A DNA stretch of 64,000 bases from Butyrivibrio proteoclasticus (GTDB lineage: Bacteria; Bacillota; Clostridia; Lachnospirales; Lachnospiraceae), in assembly GCF_900115735.1 (NCBI RefSeq), contig NZ_FOXO01000006.1, positions 1 through 64,000 on the forward strand, given 5' to 3'. Of the stretch, positions 29,826 through 61,943 are shown piece by piece; position 1 is the first letter of the stretch, and every line of letters starts with the position of its first letter. A model generated the notes under the pieces. That model saw only the letters and a list, made by a program, of their open reading frames with translations, made no database searches and was not told the origin of the DNA. Made by a program: the position numbers and the translations under genes.

Positions 29826-31595
29826 ATGAGTGAGGAAATCTTAAGCGCAATTGACAGTAGTGTTTTTGGTGTTTGGTTTCTTATAGGTGCAGCATTGGTA
29901 TTTTGGATGCAGGCCGGATTTGCAATGTGTGAGGCGGGGTTTACCAGAGCCAAAAACACAGGAAATATCATAATGAAGAATCTTATGGATTTCTGTATTG
30001 GAACTGTAGTTTTTATTCTTATCGGTTTCGGATTATTTCTTGGGGAGGATTTAGCCGGAATAATCGGAAAACCGGGATTTGATATTTTTACAAATTATGC
30101 TGGTTTTGACTGGTCAAACTTCGTATTTAACCTTGTTTTCTGTGCTACTACAGCAACAATCGTTTCAGGATCAATGGCTGAGAGAACAAAATTCATTTCC
30201 TATTGTGTGTACTCGGCAGTTATCTCAGCAATCATTTATCCAATTGAAGCACATTGGACATGGGGCGGTGGATGGCTGTCACAGATAGGTTTCCATGATT
30301 TTGCAGGATCTAACTGCATCCATATGGTTGGTGGTATTTCAGCTTTTATCGGAGCCGCATTCCTTGGACCTCGTATTGGTAAGTTTGAAAAAGACAAAGC
30401 AGGAAAAGTAACAAAAGTAAATGCATTTCCGGGGCATAATCTTGTAGCAGCATCCCTTGGTGTATTCATTCTCTGGCTTGGCTGGTACGGATTTAACGGA
30501 GCAGCCTGTACATCAGTAGAGCAGCTTGGATCAGTATTTGTTACAACAACAATTGCTCCTGCACTTGCAACAGTAACATGCATGATCTTTACATGGCTTA
30601 AGTATGGAAAGCCTGATGTTTCAATGTGTCTCAATGCTTCTCTTGCAGGACTTGTAGCAATCACAGCTCCTTGTGATGTAACAGATGCTTTTGGTGCAAT
30701 TGTGATTGGTATCGTAGCAGGACTTCTTGTTTGCTTTGGTGTATGGCTTCTTGATTACAAGCTTCACGTTGATGATCCTGTTGGTGCTGTCGCAGTTCAC
30801 TGCCTAAATGGTATCTGGGGAACAATTGCAGTAGGTCTTTTTGCAACTAATTCAGCTCCCGGCTATTCAATTGTCGATGCTGCAGGAAGTGAAATGGTTG
30901 GATTGTTCTACGGTGGCGGATTTAAGCTTCTTGGAATTCAGCTTCTTGGAATGTTTTCTACAGCAGCATGGACTGCAGTTACAATCAGCATCACCTTTCT
31001 TTTAATCAAAGCAGTTTTAGGTCTTAGAGTTACAGAGGAAGAAGAAATTCTTGGTCTTGATTCTACAGAGCATGGACTTGCATCAGCATATTCAGGATTT
31101 GCGATCATGGATGTTTCAAACACATTGAACATGACAGTAAATGAAAACACAGATCTTGGTGTAAGCGACTACGAAGAGGCTTCAGAGTTCCAGAAGAAAG
31201 CTTCAGTTCCTGTCGTTACAGCACCTGTACATACAGAATCAGGAATTCACAAAGTTGTTATTATCGCAAAGTTATCCCGTTACGACAAGCTTAGACGCGC
31301 TATGAACGAACTTGGCGTAACCGGAATGACTGTTACTCAAGTCATGGGTTGTGGCGTCCAGAAGGGTTCCGGCGACATGTATCGTGGCGTCGAAATGGAT
31401 GCCACACTCCTTCCTAAAATTAAACTGGAAGTTGTTGTGAGCAAGATTCCGGTTGAAGACGTTATAGAAGCAGCAAAGAAAACTCTTTATACAGGCCACA
31501 TTGGAGATGGCAAGATCTTCGTATACAGCCTCGACAATGTAGTCAAGATCCGCACCGGAGAAGAAGGTGCTGCAGCGCTGGCAGATGTTGAGTAG
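29826..31595 (+). CDS. amt: Ammonium transporter fused to a PII signalling domain
   Basis: 589 residues. Residues 1 to about 430 are an Amt/AmtB channel of eleven spans, with pore histidines in SNCIHMVGG and VGAVAVHCLNG. After a linker, residues about 475-585 form a complete PII domain (HKVVIIAKLSRYDKLRRAMN, then VTGMTVTQVMGCGVQKGSGD and the IGDGKIFVYSLDNVVKIRTG end). In the T-loop (YRGVEMDATLLPK) the usual uridylylated tyrosine is replaced by Met. The tethered PII probably gates ammonium entry according to ATP/ADP and 2-oxoglutarate. The start at 29826 has GAGAGGAG upstream; a GTG at 29742 would lie inside the terminator hairpin. Confidence 0.92.
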   Translation: MSEEILSAIDSSVFGVWFLIGAALVFWMQAGFAMCEAGFTRAKNTGNIIMKNLMDFCIGTVVFILIGFGLFLGEDLAGIIGKPGFDIFTNYAGFDWSNFVFNLVFCATTATIVSGSMAERTKFISYCVYSAVISAIIYPIEAHWTWGGGWLSQIGFHDFAGSNCIHMVGGISAFIGAAFLGPRIGKFEKDKAGKVTKVNAFPGHNLVAASLGVFILWLGWYGFNGAACTSVEQLGSVFVTTTIAPALATVTCMIFTWLKYGKPDVSMCLNASLAGLVAITAPCDVTDAFGAIVIGIVAGLLVCFGVWLLDYKLHVDDPVGAVAVHCLNGIWGTIAVGLFATNSAPGYSIVDAAGSEMVGLFYGGGFKLLGIQLLGMFSTAAWTAVTISITFLLIKAVLGLRVTEEEEILGLDSTEHGLASAYSGFAIMDVSNTLNMTVNENTDLGVSDYEEASEFQKKASVPVVTAPVHTESGIHKVVIIAKLSRYDKLRRAMNELGVTGMTVTQVMGCGVQKGSGDMYRGVEMDATLLPKIKLEVVVSKIPVEDVIEAAKKTLYTGHIGDGKIFVYSLDNVVKIRTGEEGAAALADVE

Positions 31596-31596
31596 A

Positions 31597-31771
31597 GCAC
31601 TTGGCGAGGTATTGTCGAGCCTAGTGCGAACCATGGGTGAACACTTAGCGAGGTTCTGTCGAGCTTAGTGAGAATCCCAGAGTGATTAAGCATGAGGAAA
31701 AAAGCACGAAGTGCGATTTCCGAATGTATGTAGCATGACGAGAGCAAAGCGGAGTCATGCGTATATCACTC
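31597..31771. repeat. Intergenic GA/GA hairpin cluster between amt and asnB
   Basis: Four hairpins with an internal 5'-GA / 5'-GA tandem mismatch. Two are near-copies 44 bp apart (31597-31625 CACTTGGC / GCCTAGTG; 31641-31669 CACTTAGC / GCTTAGTG), where GGC/GCC changes to AGC/GCT and so keeps pairing. The other two lie inside a larger element closed by GAGTGAT (31680-31686) / ATCACTC (31765-31771): CAT-GA-GGAA / TTCC-GA-ATG at 31691-31726 and GCATGAC-GA / GA-GTCATGC at 31733-31760. The same plan occurs at 57724-57884 with different stem sequences. No coding frame fits here. Confidence 0.8.
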
Positions 31772-33413: not shown

Positions 33414-35522
33414 ATGATAGAAGCAAGCAAATTAACAGAAGAATTTGGAAGTCTTGTATTTAATGACAAAGTAATGAGAGAACGTCTTCCAAAAGACATT
33501 TATAAGGCAGTTCATAAGACAATTGAAAAAGGAACTCACTTAGAGCTGGAGGTTGCTAACTGCGTAGCGGCAACTATGAAGGAATGGGCTGTTGAGAACG
33601 GAGCAACTCATTTTACACATTGGTTCCAGCCTATGACAGGTCTCACAGCAGAGAAGCATGACAGTTTTATTTCACCTACAGATGACGGAAGAGTCATTAT
33701 GGAGTTTTCGGGAAAAGAGCTTGTAAAGGGCGAACCTGATGCATCAAGCTTCCCATCAGGAGGACTTCGTGCAACATTTGAGGCAAGAGGTTATACAGCA
33801 TGGGATCCATCATCACCTGCATTTATCAAAGACGGATCACTTTACATTCCTACAGCATTCTGCTCCTACGGCGGTGAAGCTCTTGATAAAAAGACACCTC
33901 TTTTAAGATCAATGGAAGCTCTTTCCTATGAGGCTGTAAAACTCCTTCATCTCTTAGGTTATGAGGATGTAAACAGAGTGAATACAACAATCGGTTCAGA
34001 ACAGGAATATTTCCTTATTGATAAAGATTATTACAAAAAGAGAAAAGACCTTCTTTTCACAGGAAGAACTCTTATCGGTGCTCCTGCTACAAAGGGGCAG
34101 GAGATGGAAGATCACTACTTTGGCGTTATCAAGCCAAAAGTATCAGCATACATGCACGACCTTGATGAAGAGCTTTGGAAACTTGGAATCCCTGCAAAGA
34201 CCAAGCACAACGAAGTTGCTCCTTCACAGCATGAGCTCGCACCTGTATTTGAGACAGCAAACATCGCTGTTGATCACAACCAGCTCACAATGGAAGTTAT
34301 GAAAAAAGTTGCTGACAAGCACAATTACGCTTGTCTTTTGCATGAGAAGCCATTTGAAGGAATCAATGGTTCAGGTAAGCACAACAACTGGTCTGTTTGC
34401 ACAGATACAGGAATCAACCTTCTTGATCCGGGCAAAAATCCCGGAGAGAACACTCCTTTCCTTGTATTCCTTATGGCTGTAATTGCAGCTGTTGATGAGT
34501 ATGCACCAATCCTCAGACTTTCTGTTGCATCTGCAGGAAACGATCACAGACTTGGTGGAAATGAGGCACCACCAGCAATCATCTCAATCTTCGTTGGTGA
34601 TGAGCTGGCAGAAGTACTTAAGGCAGTAGAAGAAGGAAGTGCATACCAGAGCGCAGGCAAGGTTCAGATGGCAATGGGGGCAACAGTCCTTCCACACTTT
34701 ACAAAAGATAACACAGACAGAAACAGAACATCACCATTCGCTTTCACAGGAAACAAGTTTGAGTTCCGTATGCCAGGTTCATCAGTTTCTGTAGCAAATG
34801 CCAACATCGTCCTCAACACAGCAGTTGCAGAAGAAGTTGCAAAGCTCTATGAGAAGCTTGCTCCTTTCAAGGGCGAAGAACTTAAAGCAAAGATTGCAGA
34901 AGTTCTTAAAGAGACACTTGCAGCTCACAAGAGAGTTCTTTTCAACGGAAACGGATATACAGATGAATGGGTAGAGGAAGCAGCAAAAAGAGGTCTTCCC
35001 AACCTTAAATCACTTCCTGATGCAATGCCATACTGGATTTCAGATGAGTCAGTTGAGCTTTTCACTAAGCACGGTATCTTCACAAAAGAAGAGATTCATT
35101 CAAGATACGAGATTCTTCTTGAAAATTACTCAAAGTCAGTTCACATCGAGTCTCTCACCATGCAGGAGATGGTAAGAAAAGACCTTACAGAAGGCATCGT
35201 TGCTTACGAGAAAGATCTTGGAAAAGAAGCAATGCAGAAAAAGAGCCTTCTTGGAGAAAACGCAGCATTACTTGAAATATCACTTCTTAAGAAACTTGAT
35301 GATGCAAGCTTTGAAATGAGCAAGGCACTTGAGAAACTGGCAGAAGACACAACAATTGCTGAGGAAAAGACTGATGCACTTGAAACAGCGGCATATTATC
35401 AGAGTATAGTTCTTGCGGATATGAATGAACTAAGAAAATATGCAGATCAGGCCGAAGCCCTTATCCCTGACAAATATCTTAGTTACCCAACATACGGACA
35501 GATGCTGTTCTCTCTTAGGTAA
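33414..35522 (+). CDS. glnA: Glutamine synthetase type III
   Basis: 702 residues, the length of type III enzymes (types I and II are 350-470). Recognisable segments are MEFSGKELVKGEPDASSFPS, TAFCSYGGEALDKKTPLLRS, GSEQEYFLID, AKTKHNEVAPSQHELAPVFE and HEKPFEGINGSGKHNNWSVC. It condenses ammonium with glutamate using ATP. Ribosome site GGAGGAG precedes the ATG. It lies in the amt-asnB-glnA-gltB-gltD cluster; the gap to gltB (254 bp) holds a structured leader. Confidence 0.95.
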   Translation: MIEASKLTEEFGSLVFNDKVMRERLPKDIYKAVHKTIEKGTHLELEVANCVAATMKEWAVENGATHFTHWFQPMTGLTAEKHDSFISPTDDGRVIMEFSGKELVKGEPDASSFPSGGLRATFEARGYTAWDPSSPAFIKDGSLYIPTAFCSYGGEALDKKTPLLRSMEALSYEAVKLLHLLGYEDVNRVNTTIGSEQEYFLIDKDYYKKRKDLLFTGRTLIGAPATKGQEMEDHYFGVIKPKVSAYMHDLDEELWKLGIPAKTKHNEVAPSQHELAPVFETANIAVDHNQLTMEVMKKVADKHNYACLLHEKPFEGINGSGKHNNWSVCTDTGINLLDPGKNPGENTPFLVFLMAVIAAVDEYAPILRLSVASAGNDHRLGGNEAPPAIISIFVGDELAEVLKAVEEGSAYQSAGKVQMAMGATVLPHFTKDNTDRNRTSPFAFTGNKFEFRMPGSSVSVANANIVLNTAVAEEVAKLYEKLAPFKGEELKAKIAEVLKETLAAHKRVLFNGNGYTDEWVEEAAKRGLPNLKSLPDAMPYWISDESVELFTKHGIFTKEEIHSRYEILLENYSKSVHIESLTMQEMVRKDLTEGIVAYEKDLGKEAMQKKSLLGENAALLEISLLKKLDDASFEMSKALEKLAEDTTIAEEKTDALETAAYYQSIVLADMNELRKYADQAEALIPDKYLSYPTYGQMLFSLR

Positions 35523-35608
35523 GTATGGCCAAGATGATAACTTATCCACAGAATAGTACCTGACAAAATAAGATATATTATCATTTGTTTTTCGCTGTAC
35601 AAAGACAG

Positions 35609-35744
35609 GCATTTTAATATTGCGCAAGCAATTTCAGGGTCTTTAAAAACGTCAGTACTTATTCCCAGTATTATCGGGCATTAGTACTGCTACGTTTTTG
35701 ACGAAGCGGGAGCGTCCCTGAAATGATTGTGTAATTTAAAATGC
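35609..35744 (+). ncRNA. Structured gltB leader, three-way-junction RNA candidate
   Basis: The arms 35609-35639 and 35716-35744 pair almost fully over about 28 bp (GCATTTTAA / TTAAAATGC outermost, ATTTCAGGG / CCCTGAAAT innermost, with G-U pairs between). Two hairpins sit inside: AAAAACG...CAGTACT / AGTACTG...CGTTTTT (35645-35699) and GACG / CGTC (35700-35716). Together they form a three-way junction 32 nt before the gltB start. This could be a regulatory leader or a miniature inverted-repeat element. No known riboswitch class was recognised. Confidence 0.6.
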
Positions 35745-35776
35745 CGTCATTATATCAAAAAAGGAAGGAAGCCCAC

Positions 35777-50377: not shown

Positions 50378-50412
50378 TATAACATAGGAAATTGCTTCCT
50401 ATGTTATAAAAA
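50374..50412. repeat. Perfect 17-bp-arm inverted repeat with T/A-runs
   Basis: The arms TTTTTATAACATAGGAA and TTCCTATGTTATAAAAA flank ATTGC. It overlaps the T-run of the aspS terminator and could act as a second terminator in either direction, or be the remnant of a small mobile repeat. Confidence 0.7.
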
Positions 50413-50509
50413 AATCGCTCCGCTAAGGATGCGCACTCGCGCGATTGGAAGATGTTGCATAAATGCAACCGCGCTCGGCGCGAGAATGTCGCAAGCGACA
50501 TTCTTTTTT
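50413..50509 (+). terminator. GC-rich repeat ending in an intrinsic terminator
   Basis: A GC-rich stretch unlike its surroundings (AATCGC / GCGATT, GTTGCAT / ATGCAAC and CGCGC / GCGCG arms) ends in GAATGTCGC / GCGACATTC plus a T-run at 50484-50509. It lies directly before the glycosyltransferase start, so that gene needs a promoter inside or readthrough. Confidence 0.65.
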
Positions 50510-56406: not shown

Positions 56407-56937
56407 ATGCAATTACAGGCTCTAATGATGCTTTCTGCGGAGAACACGCAGGAGCTGGTTACATTGGTTCCCTGGACATTTATCGCAACGATAATCAACT
56501 TGTTCATTCAGATGTTCCTGATAAAGAAGTTTCTTTTCAAGCCTATCAATGAGATTCTTGAAAAGAGAAAAAATCTTGCTGATAAGACAATCAGGGAAGC
56601 TAGAGAGGCCAAGGAAGAAGCCGATTCTCTTAAAGATCAATACGAAGATAGCCTGACCAGTGCTCATGCTGAGGCTGCGAAGATTGTATCTGACGCGCAG
56701 AAAGAGGCGCAGAACAAAGCTGATGCCCTTGTAAAAGAGGCACAGGAAGAGGCAGCAGGCATCAAAGCCAGGGCGGCTGCTGATATTGAGCAGGAAAGGA
56801 AAAAGGCGGTCAACGAGGCCAAAGACGAGATTGGCTCACTTGCAATGGATATTGCAGGCAAAGTTGTTGAAAAAGAAATCAATGAAGCCGATCATAAGAA
56901 ACTTATTGATGAGTTCATCAATCAAGTTGGAGCATAA
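56407..56937 (+). CDS. atpF: ATP synthase F0 subunit b
   Basis: 176 residues: one N-terminal membrane helix (about 17-38, VPWTFIATIINLFIQMFLIK) followed by a long charged coiled coil rich in Ala, Glu and Lys (EILEKRKNLADKTIREAREA onward). It is the peripheral stalk joining F0 to F1 through the delta subunit. AAAAGGAG precedes the ATG. A 248-bp gap filled by two copies of a 119-bp repeat separates it from atpH. Confidence 0.95.
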   Translation: MQLQALMMLSAENTQELVTLVPWTFIATIINLFIQMFLIKKFLFKPINEILEKRKNLADKTIREAREAKEEADSLKDQYEDSLTSAHAEAAKIVSDAQKEAQNKADALVKEAQEEAAGIKARAAADIEQERKKAVNEAKDEIGSLAMDIAGKVVEKEINEADHKKLIDEFINQVGA

Positions 56938-56951
56938 ATTAAGAGACAAAA

Positions 56952-57184
56952 AACAGTCCGAAAGCATTTACTGCTGAGGACGTAAGAAAGTGAGTCGAGT
57001 GTGAGCATGCCCTTGCCGAAGGCAAATTTGTTGGCATGCGAATCAGAGTTTCGACGAAGGAAAAAATAGAAACAGTCCGAAGCATTTACTGCTGAGGACG
57101 TAAGAAAGTGAAACAAGGGTGAGCATGCCCTTGCCGAAGGCAACTTAAATGGCATGCGAATCAGAGTTTCGACGAAGGAGAAAC
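56952..57184 (+). repeat. Two direct copies of a 119-bp structured repeat between atpF and atpH
   Basis: Copies start at 56952 and 57071. Each begins with hairpin GTCC-GA-(A)AGCA-TTTAC-TGCT-GA-GGAC (internal GA/GA tandem mismatch), then GCATGCC / GGCATGC enclosing CTTGCC-GAA-GGCAA, then a shared end GCGAATCAGAGTTTCGACGA. The copies differ mainly in loops. The second copy ends in AAGGAG, which is the ribosome site for atpH; the first has AAGGAAAA instead. No coding frame. Confidence 0.85.
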
Positions 57185-57185
57185 T

Positions 57186-57725
57186 ATGAGTAAAGCTGGA
57201 GATCTTTATGGGCAGAGCCTATATGATCTGGCAGCGGAATCAAACCTATCGGATGAAATATTGGGCGAAATGGAGGTAATTAACGGAATCTTCAAAGAGA
57301 ATCCGGATTATGTAACACTCCTCTCGGAACCCTCAGTCCCAAAGAAGGAAAGACTTCAGTTGGTTGACCAGGCACTTGGTGATGGTTGCCAGGAGTACCT
57401 TTTAAACTTCATCAAGATTCTCATTGAGAAGGGAATTTTAAGAGAGTTTTCTGCATGTCAAAAGAGATACAGAAGATGCTACAACGAGGAACACGGCATT
57501 GCTGATGCCCTTGTTACTACGGCAGTAGCCTTAGATGATTCTCAGCTTTCACTTCTCAGGGCAAAACTTGAGAATATAAGCGGCAAGAAAGTATTGCTAC
57601 GACAGAAGGTTGATGGCAGCGTTCTTGGTGGCGTGAGAGTAGATCTTGAGGGACAGCTCTTTGACGGAACAGTAAAGGGCAGGTTATCCGAGCTTCGCAG
57701 AAGAGTCGACGAGACAGTAATTTGA
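57186..57725 (+). CDS. atpH: ATP synthase F1 subunit delta
   Basis: 179 residues. OSCP/delta family: N-terminal helical domain (GDLYGQSLYDLAAESNLSDE) and C-terminal part with VDGSVLGGVRVDLEGQLFDG, matching the conserved end of the family. It joins the top of the alpha/beta hexamer to subunit b. Its ribosome site (AAGGAG, 5 nt before the ATG) is supplied by the end of the second upstream repeat copy. Confidence 0.93.
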   Translation: MSKAGDLYGQSLYDLAAESNLSDEILGEMEVINGIFKENPDYVTLLSEPSVPKKERLQLVDQALGDGCQEYLLNFIKILIEKGILREFSACQKRYRRCYNEEHGIADALVTTAVALDDSQLSLLRAKLENISGKKVLLRQKVDGSVLGGVRVDLEGQLFDGTVKGRLSELRRRVDETVI

Positions 57726-57884
57726 TAACACAAATGTCGCAGTAATAAATGCGAGTGTGCTTGCACAATGAGCATTGAGTACTTGCGACATGCAAATACA
57801 TGAGGAAGTAGTGCAATAGCACGGATTCCGAATGTATGAAGAATTGCGAAAGTTGCATGCAACGGAGCAATTCGGGGTGTTATC
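57724..57884 (+). repeat. Structured GA/GA hairpin element between atpH and atpA
   Basis: The element is closed by GATAACAC (57724-57731) / GTGTTATC (57877-57884). Inside are an ATGTCGCA / TGCGACAT stem (57734-57741 with 57784-57791) enclosing AATGC-GA-GTGTGC / GCACA-AT-GA-GCATT (57748-57776), then ATACAT-GA-GGAA / TTCC-GA-ATGTAT (57796-57837), then GAATTGC-GA / GA-GCAATTC with an inner GTTGC / GCAAC (57841-57873). It matches the plan of 31680-31771 with different stem sequences, so pairing is conserved over sequence. Confidence 0.8.
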
Positions 57885-57911
57885 AAAAAATAAAAATGGT
57901 CGGAGGAAAAT

Positions 57912-59432
57912 ATGGAACTAAAACCAGAAAAAATATCCGAGGTCATTCGAAGCCAGATAAAGAATTATCAGAATGCAATTATTCAGAACGAGACTGGTAC
58001 AGTTCTTACAGTTGGTGATGGTATCGCACGTGTAAGCGGACTTTTGAACTGTATGTCAGGTGAGCTTTTGGAGTTTGAGAATGGTACATTCGGAATGGCT
58101 CAGAACCTCGAGGAAACAGTAGTATCTGCGGTTTTGTTCGGCGAGGATGTAGGAATCAGCGAAGGACAGACCGTTAAGCGTACAGGAAGAGTCGTATCTG
58201 TTCCTGTAGGAGAAAAAATGATTGGACGTGTTGTTAACGCCATTGGTCAGCCAATCGACGGAGCAGGCCCAATCGAAACAACAGAATTCAGACCAGTTGA
58301 ATCACCAGCTCCTGGTATCATTGCCAGACAGCCGGTTAAGGAGCCTCTTCAGACTGGTATTAAGGCTATCGATTCAATGATCCCTATCGGTAGAGGTCAG
58401 CGTGAGCTTATCATTGGCGATAGACAGACAGGTAAGACAACAATTGCCATCGATACAATCCTTAACCAGAAGGGCAAGGATGTTATCTGTATTTATGTTG
58501 CTATCGGACAGAAACGTTCAACAGTAACAGCTCTTGTTGAAGACCTTAAAAAGGGCGGAGCTATGGACTACACAATCGTTGTAGCAGCTACAGCTTCAGA
58601 ACCAAGCCCACTGCAGTACATTTCACCATACACAGGCTGTGCTATGGGTGAGTACTTCATGTATAAAGGAAAACACGTGCTTTGTATCTACGACGACTTG
58701 TCCAAGCATGCCGTAGCTTACCGTGCACTCTCCTTGCTGATCAGAAGACCACCGGGACGTGAAGCTTATCCTGGAGACGTTTTCTATCTGCATTCAAGAC
58801 TTCTTGAAAGAGCTGCCAAACTCTCAGAAGAAAATGGAGGAGGCTCACTTACAGCCCTTCCTATCATCGAGACACAGGCAGGTGATGTATCAGCGTACAT
58901 TCCTACAAATGTTATCTCCATCACAGATGGACAGATATTCCTTGAGACAGAGCTTTTCCACTCAGGAATCATGCCAGCGGTTAACCCTGGTATTTCAGTA
59001 TCCCGAGTTGGTGGTAATGCTCAGATCAAGGCTATGAAGAAGGTTGCCGGTACACTTAAACTTGTATATTCACAGTACCGTGAACTTCAGAGTTTCGCTC
59101 AGTTCGGTTCAGATCTGGATGAGGATACCAAGGCACGTCTTGCTCAAGGTGAACGTATTGTTGAAGTTCTTAAGCAGGACAAGAATCAGCCTGTTCCTGT
59201 AGAAAAGCAGGTAGCTATTCTTTATGCTGTTGTCAACAATATCCTTATCAAGGTTGCTGCTTCTGATGTTGCAGAGTATGAAGCCGGACTTTATGAATTC
59301 CTTGATAGCAATCCTACCGGAATCGCAGCTATGCGTGAGATCCGTGAGACTGGAAAGCTTGAGGCTGAAACAGAAGCTAAGCTTAAAGAGACACTGAACG
59401 CTTATACTGAAAACTTTTTAAAGAGAAAATAA
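57912..59432 (+). CDS. atpA: ATP synthase F1 subunit alpha
   Basis: 506 residues. Non-catalytic nucleotide-binding subunit: N-terminal beta barrel ([20 protein letters not shown]), P-loop [34 protein letters not shown], and the conserved arginine finger region [25 protein letters not shown] lies 6-7 nt before the ATG. Length and motifs are normal for the family. Confidence 0.97.
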
Positions 59433-59448
59433 TCAGGAGGAAAACTAA

Positions 59449-60306
59449 ATGGCTGGATCAATGAAAGCTGTTAAACTCCGAATAAAAAGCGTCCAGAGCA
59501 CAATGCAGATAACGAAGGCTATGCAGCTGGTAGCAGCTTCAAAACTTCGTAAAGCTAAAGAGAAAGCTGATAATTCAAAGCCTTATCTTGAGACAATGCT
59601 TGCAACACTTACAGATATAGCCAACGGAAACAATGATTTCCGTTCAATCTACACCAAGAGTGGAAATGATAGATGGCTGTATGTTGTAATTGCCGGAGAC
59701 AGAGGTCTTGCAGGCGGCTACAACTCCAACCTGTTTAAATTTGTTGAAGCTGAGATCAAGGATAAGAACAATGTAACAGTTCTCCCTATCGGTAAAAAAT
59801 CTGTGGAGTTCTTTAAGCATAGAAATGTGCCTATCCTCACAGAGGAATACGCCGAAGTTGCCAAGGTAAACATTTCAGACTGTTTCCAGGTAGCCAAGCT
59901 TATCTGCGGATCGTATGGCGGTGACGGTTTCGGACATGTCTTCCTGTGCTACACGAATTTCGTGTCCATGCTTTCTCAGGTGCCTACCTCATCATCACTT
60001 CTTCCGCTTTCAGATCTTAAATCTGAAAATGTGGAAAGCGATGGTAAAGCCAAAGACCTGATATTGTATGAGCCTGACAGTGAGACAGTGTTTAATGAGA
60101 TTGTTCCAGAGTATCTTGCTGGAATTCTGTATTCAAGTATTAACATTTCTTATGCATCAGAGCTTGCCGCTCGTAGAACAGCTATGGAGGCAGCTACAGA
60201 CAATGCAGAAGAGATGATCGATAGCTTGAGCCTCTACTATAACAGAGCCCGTCAGGCAAGCATTACTCAGGAAATTACTGAGATTGTTGCTGGAGCGGAA
60301 AGCTGA
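59449..60306 (+). CDS. atpG: ATP synthase F1 subunit gamma
   Basis: 285 residues. The N-terminal helix MKAVKLRIKSVQSTMQITKA and the C-terminal helix AARRTAMEAATDNAEEMIDS form the rotating shaft; the central Rossmann-like domain contains IAGDRGLAGGYNSNLFK. It lies 16 bp after atpA with AGGAGG upstream. A 239-bp repeat-filled gap follows before atpD. Confidence 0.95.
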   Translation: MAGSMKAVKLRIKSVQSTMQITKAMQLVAASKLRKAKEKADNSKPYLETMLATLTDIANGNNDFRSIYTKSGNDRWLYVVIAGDRGLAGGYNSNLFKFVEAEIKDKNNVTVLPIGKKSVEFFKHRNVPILTEEYAEVAKVNISDCFQVAKLICGSYGGDGFGHVFLCYTNFVSMLSQVPTSSSLLPLSDLKSENVESDGKAKDLILYEPDSETVFNEIVPEYLAGILYSSINISYASELAARRTAMEAATDNAEEMIDSLSLYYNRARQASITQEITEIVAGAES

Positions 60307-60499
60307 ACACTTAGCGAGATGATAATCGAGCTTAGTGTGAAGCTTGTTCTGGCGAGTGCGAAGCACGAGAGCAGAACATCCGATTTATATCTAGCGAGGT
60401 ATTTTCGAGCTTGGTGTACTAGCTTGTTCTGTCGAAGCTGCTCTGCAGCTGAGAGCAGAACTTCCTCTGACTAGTAACAGTACCGCGAGAGCAGAACTT
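60307..60499 (+). repeat. GA/GA hairpin cluster between atpG and atpD
   Basis: Four hairpins and one truncated copy, each with the internal GA/GA tandem mismatch: 60308-60337 (CACTTAGC / GCTTAGTG, as at 31641), 60345-60378 (TGTTCT / AGAACA with inner GTGC / GCAC), 60389-60415 (ATCTAGC / GCTTGGT) and 60426-60461 (GTTCTG / CAGAAC with inner AGCTGC / GCAGCT). GCGAGAGCAGAACTTCC near 60484-60500 is the 3' half of another copy. They fill the gap; no coding frame fits. Confidence 0.8.
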
Positions 60500-60518
60500 C
60501 CGCAGATTCTGGAATTAA

Positions 60519-61943
<1,425 letters not shown>

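What the first reader, a model, noticed from the sequence alone, without database searches (positions are those of the whole stretch)
56952..60499. Family of covarying hairpins with invariant GA/GA tandem mismatch in three ATP synthase intergenic gaps
At least nine hairpins in the atpF-atpH, atpH-atpA and atpG-atpD gaps share one plan: outer stem, then 5'-GA on each strand (tandem GA mismatch), then inner stem and loop. Outer stems are GTCC/GGAC, AATGC/GCATT, ATACAT/ATGTAT, GAATTGC/GCAATTC, CACTTAGC/GCTTAGTG, TGTTCT/AGAACA and GTTCTG/CAGAAC. Their sequences are unrelated yet each pairs, and GA/GA is constant. Changed sequence with kept pairing is the mark of selected RNA structure. Tandem sheared GA pairs are known protein- or RNA-docking motifs. 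Being inside an operon whose subunits are needed in unequal amounts (c, alpha and beta in excess), they may set RNA processing or stability.
Basis: partly seen in the sequence, partly recalled or inferred. Interest (0 to 1): 0.9.

Follow-up and report, generated by a model that had tools for sequence, protein, structure and literature searches.

The report
MITE-derived RNA hairpins at stop codons
The hairpins between the ATP synthase genes are copies of repeated structured elements scattered through Butyrivibrio genomes, at least one type of which is a small transposon-like repeat in related bacteria, and here they mostly sit in the sense direction right at the stop codons of operon genes, where they may act on the messenger RNA.

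Summary
The hairpins are real and more than chance, but they are not one atp-specific family. The window is from a Butyrivibrio genome. The atpH-atpA gap holds Rfam RF01699 (Clostridiales-1 RNA, family C); the amtB gap a truncated copy. The atpF-atpH gap (family B) and atpG-atpD gap (family A) hold elements absent from Rfam. A and C are dispersed repeats, and near relatives lack some copies (gap 186 vs 20 nt, 248 vs 54 nt). Outside Butyrivibrio, RF01699 is the body of a MITE-like repeat: terminal inverted repeats, 6-7-bp target duplications in 20 of 23 copies bearing both ends, near-identical copies, random orientation. My searches found no report of this. In Butyrivibrio, the copies of A and C examined lie on the strand of the upstream gene (97 of 103) and mostly start within 12 nt of its stop codon (79 of 103), unlike a MITE and a MITE-like repeat of the same genome. 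Stems covary. Best reading: structured repeats of mobile origin (C: from its relatives; A: inferred), kept as intercistronic RNA modules that act on mRNA decay, processing or termination. That function is inferred, not shown. The atp-stoichiometry idea is not supported.

The parts
56954..57066 (+). Family B element, copy 1, in the atpF-atpH gap (hairpin 1 with GAA/GA loop, linker CGTAAGAAAGTGA, hairpin 2 with nested GAA-loop hairpin)
   Evidence: CM R2 122.5 bits; member of the training set
57073..57185 (+). Family B element, copy 2; runs up to the atpH start codon
   Evidence: CM R2 144.3 bits; member of the training set; related sequences in L052, L066, L082, L104
57165..57185 (+). Hairpin B3 AGTTTC-GACGAAGGA-GAAACT holding the atpH Shine-Dalgarno; 4 of 6 pairs change on both sides, three of them together in L066 and one in this copy
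   Evidence: (helix 5, 100% of cells paired); five sequences are informative
57723..57885 (+). Clostridiales-1 (RF01699) element in the atpH-atpA gap with its closing helix; the atpH stop TGA (57723-57725) can pair with TCA (57883-57885)
   Evidence: Rfam hit 57726-57882, 97.9 bits, cut-off 48; sequence
60303..60378 (+). Family A unit 1, at the atpG stop codon: hairpin A1 (GA/GA loop, U.U mismatch) plus hairpin A2 (GTTCTG/CAGAAC)
   Evidence: (CM R1 88.7 bits; member of the training set)
60383..60462 (+). Family A unit 2
   Evidence: 71.9 bits; member of the training set
60487..60502 (+). 3'-tail-only partial copy of family A (GAGAGCAGAACTTCCG)
   Evidence: direct repeat D1; tail repeats also in L052, L063, L080, L104 (by eye)
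31593..31677 (+). Family A variant (two A1-type hairpins) starting at the TAG stop of the upstream ammonium-transporter-like gene
   Evidence: 31593-31645, 41 bits; 31637-31707, 32.6 bits; empty in AE2015
31667..31771 (+). Truncated Clostridiales-1 element without the long first hairpin
   Evidence: 46.9 bits, just under the cut-off of 48

Best explanation
The hairpins are copies of short structured intergenic repeats. Family C (RF01699) is, in other Lachnospiraceae genera, a MITE-like repeat with a conserved folded core (shown). In Butyrivibrio nearly all examined copies lack the mobile ends, lie in the sense direction, mostly between co-directional genes, and often begin at or pair with the upstream stop codon (shown). 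Family A, with no detected sequence kinship to C, has the same placement (shown). Most likely (inferred, about 0.45 for this last step) they are kept as intercistronic RNA modules: a compact fold right after the stop codon that blocks 3'-5' decay or guides cleavage, and so sets the separate stability or translation of the genes on either side. The tandem GA loops would be stable non-canonical pairs within these folds; the antisense strand would carry TC/TC and A.C mismatches instead, so the fold is best in the sense strand. In gap 1 a covarying hairpin also encloses the atpH Shine-Dalgarno, which suggests some control of atpH initiation.
For: RF01699 in the gap; 15 copies over cut-off in the own genome; a match in 45 of 80 family genomes, own included, 35 over cut-off, and in 7 of 7 further Butyrivibrio genomes. 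Both ends plus a 6-7-bp duplication in 20 of 23 copies outside Butyrivibrio, control 0; 21 copies in one genome 94-100% identical. Presence/absence: 11 of 14 collinear length differences between the own contig and AE2015 (117 kb aligned) carry a structured repeat (assignment by eye). Gap 2 is 186/186 identical to L051 although the flanking atpH and atpA are 93% identical, and absent in relatives at 97-98%. A family A unit nested inside a C element in two genomes (L387, L388). Orientation, same strand vs opposite: C own 17/1, A own 25/0, A other Butyrivibrio 28/1, C other Butyrivibrio 27/2; controls C other genera 18/21, hc1 15/12, hc2 10/6; own stop within 12 nt 11/18, 21/26, 27/30, 20/29 against 4/41, 3/28, 3/16. 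Stop codon wholly inside the closing helix in 20 of 31. Covariation.
Against: No expression, decay or binding data. Only 1 of 46 examined Butyrivibrio C copies shows TIR plus TSD (L355), so the mobile origin of the others is inferred from their relatives. Family A's ends were not searched systematically for TIR or TSD and none were noticed; no parent enzyme was found for C. Several family A sites recur at what look like orthologous genes in several species (by eye), so loci are not all independent and A is partly stable. The nested A units are not at stop codons, and some A variants follow T-rich runs rather than stops. Sense bias could be survival bias. Matches were picked by covariance-model score, which favours pairing, and orientation rests on a simple ORF finder. 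Several stretches fold no better than shuffles.
Confidence: 0.55

Rival explanations
1. Passive debris: the elements are decayed repeat copies without function. Only sense copies at gene ends survive because antisense or misplaced copies harm operon expression.
For: High turnover between near relatives; copies in other genera are in random orientation; many partial and tail-only copies.
Against: Stems keep pairing while the sequence changes; family A sits at apparently orthologous stop codons in several species; two families without detected kinship share the same placement; exact abutment on the stop codon is more than survival would need.
Confidence: 0.28
2. Targeted insertion: in Butyrivibrio the elements enter DNA at stop codons or after T-rich ends in a strand-specific, perhaps RNA- or transcription-coupled way.
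For: Sense orientation and stop abutment; several family A variants follow TTTTTTGTG-like runs; a clean site TTTTTTGTG|GCACAAAAA for another family.
Against: No target duplication or enzyme found for A; the one Butyrivibrio C copy with TIR and TSD is antisense, as for ordinary DNA transposition; closing helices differ from copy to copy (17 distinct of 18); A units nested inside C elements.
Confidence: 0.1
3. ATP-synthase-specific regulators that set unequal subunit synthesis.
For: Three gaps of the operon are occupied, and hairpin B3 encloses the atpH Shine-Dalgarno with covariation. Family A recurs at the atpG-atpD gap: 12 of the 16 long gaps there, by eye.
Against: Same A and C elements at many other loci; most related atp loci have short gaps at these places; relatives carry RF01699-like elements in other atp gaps.
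Confidence: 0.05

Closest known systems
Rfam RF01699 Clostridiales-1 RNA (Weinberg et al. 2010, PMC2864571; table passages seen)
   Same: Gap 2 matches the full model at twice the cut-off; 31667-31770 is a truncated match.
   Different: Rfam types it Gene; sRNA, and the 2010 table rates it 'probably' an RNA and probably not cis-regulatory. Here it is the core of a MITE-like repeat in other genera and a mostly sense, intercistronic element in Butyrivibrio.
bcr1-bcr18 repeats of the Bacillus cereus group (PMC3446304, passages seen)
   Same: Interspersed intergenic repeats, some MITE-like, some with conserved RNA structure, found in UTRs and operon gaps of transcripts; bcr3 presence correlates with longer mRNA half-life.
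   Different: Other taxa; no sequence comparison was made; stop-codon placement with one orientation is not mentioned in the passages I saw.
ERIC and Correia MITEs (review PMC10969869, passages seen)
   Same: MITE insertions near genes change transcript processing by RNase III or RNase E.
   Different: No sequence relation was tested; here placement is at the stop codon and in one orientation.
REP/BIME palindromes (recalled; abstract start of PMC3733652 seen in a listing)
   Same: Small palindromic repeats for which a role in mRNA stabilisation has been proposed.
   Different: Larger multi-hairpin folds with tandem GA loops; no REP motif was searched for.

Membership tests
Clostridiales-1 RNA (RF01699) | Match to the covariance model above the gathering score | tested here: met
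   57726-57882: 97.9 bits vs 48. Families A and B do not reach it; one sub-threshold match, 29.5 bits, E 0.001, spans the end of atpG and family A unit 1.
Families A and C being one family | Sequence-structure match of model R1 (family A) to C elements | tested here: not met
   R1 over 17 own C loci and 6 loci of other genera: one match, in L016, which is the real A variant next door. The 29.5-bit RF01699 match above leaves distant kinship open.
MITE (RF01699 element in other Lachnospiraceae) | Terminal inverted repeats | tested here: met
   TGATRCCAGGGTCAAAAGG ... CCTTTTGACCCCNACATCA, read
MITE (RF01699 element in other Lachnospiraceae) | Target-site duplications | tested here: met
   20 of 23 with 6-7 bp; shifted-end control 0
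MITE (RF01699 element in other Lachnospiraceae) | A transposase that can move it | tested here: inconclusive
   30 loci of the right end examined in 5 genomes; none of 10 ORF starts read looked like a transposase; no family search was run on them
MITE (the copies in this window) | TIR and target duplication | tested here: not met
   C copies only: no right TIR-like end with TSD at the window copies; 1 of 46 Butyrivibrio C copies has it; exact right-end pattern in 0 of 41 genomes of the genus
Kink-turn | 3-nt bulge next to tandem GA pairs | tested here: not met
   Loops are symmetric 2x2, or 3x2 in B copy 1; definition recalled
Intrinsic terminator | GC-rich hairpin followed by a U-run on the sense strand | tested here: inconclusive
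   One sense-strand scan hit in the three gaps, 57013-57025, a 5-bp stem with weak tail ATTTGTTGGC; two on the antisense strand
Known riboswitch or other Rfam class for A and B | Rfam match | tested here: not met
   No family other than RF01699 at E<=5 over 56900-60560, and no match over the repeats in 20 further loci at gathering scores

The most novel reading that the evidence does not exclude
Butyrivibrio uses structured repeats as genome-wide stop-codon modules: two families without detected kinship (A, and RF01699 of MITE origin) have both come to embrace the stop codon of operon genes in the sense strand. This would point to one shared machinery (a protein, nuclease or the terminating ribosome) that reads a helix closed at the stop codon together with tandem GA loops.
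Probability: 0.22. Interest if true: 0.85.

Novelty: new variant of a known kind. Interest (0 to 1): 0.6.

Why it matters
It would reclassify an orphan Rfam sRNA family as the core of a transposon-like repeat, and show one genus in which such repeats line up with stop codons inside operons. That is a testable case of mobile repeats becoming RNA regulatory parts, and a caution against reading covariation in dispersed repeats as proof of a dedicated regulator of one operon.

Tried and rejected
Chance hairpins: rejected by shuffles, although over whole contigs the GA/GA class is only mildly enriched or not enriched (an earlier scan with a stricter outer stem, did not list GA/GA among its 12 commonest classes).

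One common family for all hairpins: rejected; three sequence families, and model R1 does not find C elements. A weak RF01699 match at family A unit 1 (29.5 bits) leaves distant kinship open.

Intrinsic terminators or internal promoters: little support (one promoter-like match, inside atpF, against 6.3 in shuffles; one sense-strand terminator-like site in the gaps).

Parent transposase: not found in the sample. Y1 transposases and reverse transcriptases were considered but not searched. No RNA-seq was available, and R-scape is not among the tools.

Literature: searches of the held open-access library. Of the five papers listed only the 2010 paper was opened (passages); no listed title treats RF01699 as a mobile element. 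The library lacks most subscription journals.

Rows dropped: L018 from the C counts (its match spans family A unit 1); L118, L119, L123, L127 from the A counts (second tandem copies), leaving 26 of the 30 loci delivered of 68 hits. A in other Butyrivibrio: the 30 loci delivered of 175 matches. C in other Butyrivibrio: 29 of the 30 loci delivered of 129 matches; L347, at a contig end, was dropped. In one search also L354 and one tandem copy in L281. hc1: 28 of 30 loci fitted my pattern; hc2: 16 copies found by pattern in the stretches. C in other genera: 41 copies picked by me from the best-scoring listed matches of 7 genomes. Many genome searches scored only part of their candidates (e.g. 150 of 1231), so copy numbers are lower bounds.
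Full report
Setting. The window is the first 64 kb of contig G000:C45 of a 4.17-Mb genome. Its AtpH is 99% identical to that of Butyrivibrio sp. Su6 and AE2015. The hairpins lie in an atp operon (genes named from their sequence).

What is in the gaps. The atpH-atpA gap (57726-57882) is Rfam RF01699, Clostridiales-1 RNA, 97.9 bits against a cut-off of 48. The 31667-31770 stretch is a truncated copy without the first long hairpin (46.9 bits). The atpF-atpH gap holds two copies of a 107-nt unit (family B). The atpG-atpD gap holds two units of a two-hairpin element (family A) and a tail fragment. A and B have no Rfam match of their own; a sub-threshold RF01699 match (29.5 bits, E 0.001) spans the end of atpG and family A unit 1.

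More than chance. Strict GA/GA hairpins: 5 in the four gaps against 0.15 in shuffles. Family A: 23 units, 12 of 20 pairs with changes on both sides, 93.9% of cells paired, slid controls 21-48%. GA is on both strands in 22 of 23 units for hairpin A1 and 20 of 23 for A2, so not invariant. Family B: 6 units, 8 of 29 pairs with changes on both sides. In the hairpin that holds the atpH Shine-Dalgarno, three pairs flip together in L066 and one differs in this window's copy 2. These controls do not replace R-scape.

Dispersed. RF01699: 15 copies over cut-off in the own genome, 19 matches at E<=0.001, and 4 to 42 matches in each of seven further Butyrivibrio genomes. Family A: 68 hits at E<=1 in the own genome, 16 to 47 at E<=0.001 in six further Butyrivibrio genomes. 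In a sample of the family, 4 of 39 other genera have family A matches at E<=1e-6, the best 53.9 bits. The gap-1 sequence itself has no close second locus by BLAST, but model R2 (family B) finds 65 other loci in the own genome at E<=1. Those read are mostly two repeats that I call hc1 and hc2. hc2 is 145 bp (one copy 141), with an 11-bp TIR and 8-bp target duplications in 15 of 16 copies: a MITE. hc1 has TIR-like ends but no clear duplication. I read a shared internal plan with family B by eye (hairpin 1, CGTRAGAA linker, hairpin 2 with a nested hairpin).

Turnover. In 63 related atp loci the three gaps vary: atpF-atpH 248 nt here, 54 in Su6 and AE2015; atpH-atpA 186 here, 20 in both; atpG-atpD 239, 48 and 160. 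Gaps over 90 nt occur in 4 of 63, 1 of 61 and 16 of 56 loci respectively; 12 of those 16 hold family A by eye. Other Butyrivibrio carry RF01699-like elements in atpE-atpF or atpB-atpE instead (L063, L066, L076-L078, L085, by eye). The 186-nt gap 2 is identical to that of L051 while atpH and atpA are 93.1% and 92.7% identical; Su6 and AE2015, 97-98% identical in those genes, lack it. Over 117 kb aligned to AE2015 there are 14 collinear breaks with length differences of 30 nt or more, and one 36-nt gap inside an alignment that I did not assign. Of the 14, 11 carry a structured repeat: C or A variants at 31594, 48481 (in AE2015), 57721, 104464, 137408; B at 56988; hc1 at 69001; two further families at 35522 and 107876, and at 50379 and 111990 (assignment by eye). 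In AE2015 and in L051's genome a family A unit lies inside a C element (L387:563-634 in 475-661 and the same in L388), which suggests that A can insert as well.

RF01699 is a MITE-like core outside Butyrivibrio. In a family sample 45 of 80 genomes match (own included), 35 over cut-off, two reaching the scoring limit of 30. In G044, 21 copies are 94-100% identical. The repeat extends about 30 nt past the Rfam model to a second end that mirrors the first. Of 23 copies bearing both ends, 20 are flanked by 6-7-bp direct repeats; shifted ends give none. A right-end pattern finds 51 places in G044 and 5 to 13 in four other genomes, none for the reversed control. No parent enzyme was found.

Placement in Butyrivibrio differs. 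With one method for all sets, the upstream ORF is on the element's strand vs the other strand: C own 17/1, A own 25/0 (1 none), A in other Butyrivibrio 28/1 (1 none), C in other Butyrivibrio 27/2. Controls: C in other genera 18/21 (2 none), hc1 15/12 (1 none), hc2 10/6. The upstream gene's own stop lies within 12 nt of the element start in 11/18, 21/26, 27/30 and 20/29 (79 of 103) against 4/41, 3/28 and 3/16. Fisher tests against the controls give p from 0.035 to 1.6e-6 for orientation and 0.017 to 3e-12 for stop placement; shared loci make these too optimistic. The closing helix of C is longer than the model (mean 1.87 further pairs, random partners 0.77; other genera 0.78 and 0.44), and in 20 of 31 copies the stop codon lies wholly in its 5' arm (other genera 1 of 4). 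In this window the atpH stop TGA can pair with TCA. One of 46 Butyrivibrio C copies still has TIR and a 6-bp duplication, and it is antisense (L355).

Reading. Shown: structured repeats, dispersed (A, C) and polymorphic; RF01699 a MITE-like core in other genera; sense, often stop-abutting placement in Butyrivibrio for two families without detected kinship. Inferred: that the folds were kept because they act in the mRNA. The closest precedent I saw is the bcr repeats of the B. cereus group, where transcripts with bcr3 live longer, a correlation the authors do not claim as causal (PMC3446304, passages); ERIC and Correia elements change RNase processing (PMC10969869, passages). The alternative that only harmless sense copies survive is not excluded.

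Limits. Matches were chosen by score and many candidates were not scored; genes were called by a simple ORF rule; the Butyrivibrio sets are not phylogenetically corrected; no expression data were available.

Noticed in passing
G000:C45:69004-69148 (L181) and 29 further loci L152-L180: hc1: about 145-bp near-identical repeat in the own genome (44 BLAST matches, 40 of 81 candidates scored), orientation mixed; hairpin 3 shows a compensatory change in L146 (by eye).
   Followed up: partly
L182-L199, e.g. L183:2019-2163: hc2: 145-bp MITE, TIR GTTACTGTTCA, 8-bp target duplications in 15 of 16 copies.
   Followed up: partly
L387:475-661 and L388:454-640: Composite: a family A unit inside a Clostridiales-1 element, after its ACATGAGG.
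   Followed up: partly
window 35523-35753 and C45:107877-107980: Another repeat family (core CGTCAGTACTTAT...ATTAGTACTGCTACG) present here, absent in AE2015, clean empty site at 107876.
   Followed up: no
window 50380-50502 and C45:111991-112116: About 125-nt repeat inserted in the T-run after terminator-like hairpins and ending in a terminator-like hairpin of its own; absent in AE2015.
   Followed up: no
C45:137408-137510 (L141): A family A variant sits after the T-run that follows a SAM riboswitch aptamer; AE2015 lacks it.
   Followed up: no
L080, L104, L076, L077, L085 (atp gaps): 3'-tail-only copies of A and RF01699-like elements, some in arrays, follow full copies in the same direction.
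   Followed up: no
G080:C21:10255-10292 (L371): Two element ends joined head to head without a core (38-bp palindrome), as if the core had been lost.
   Followed up: no
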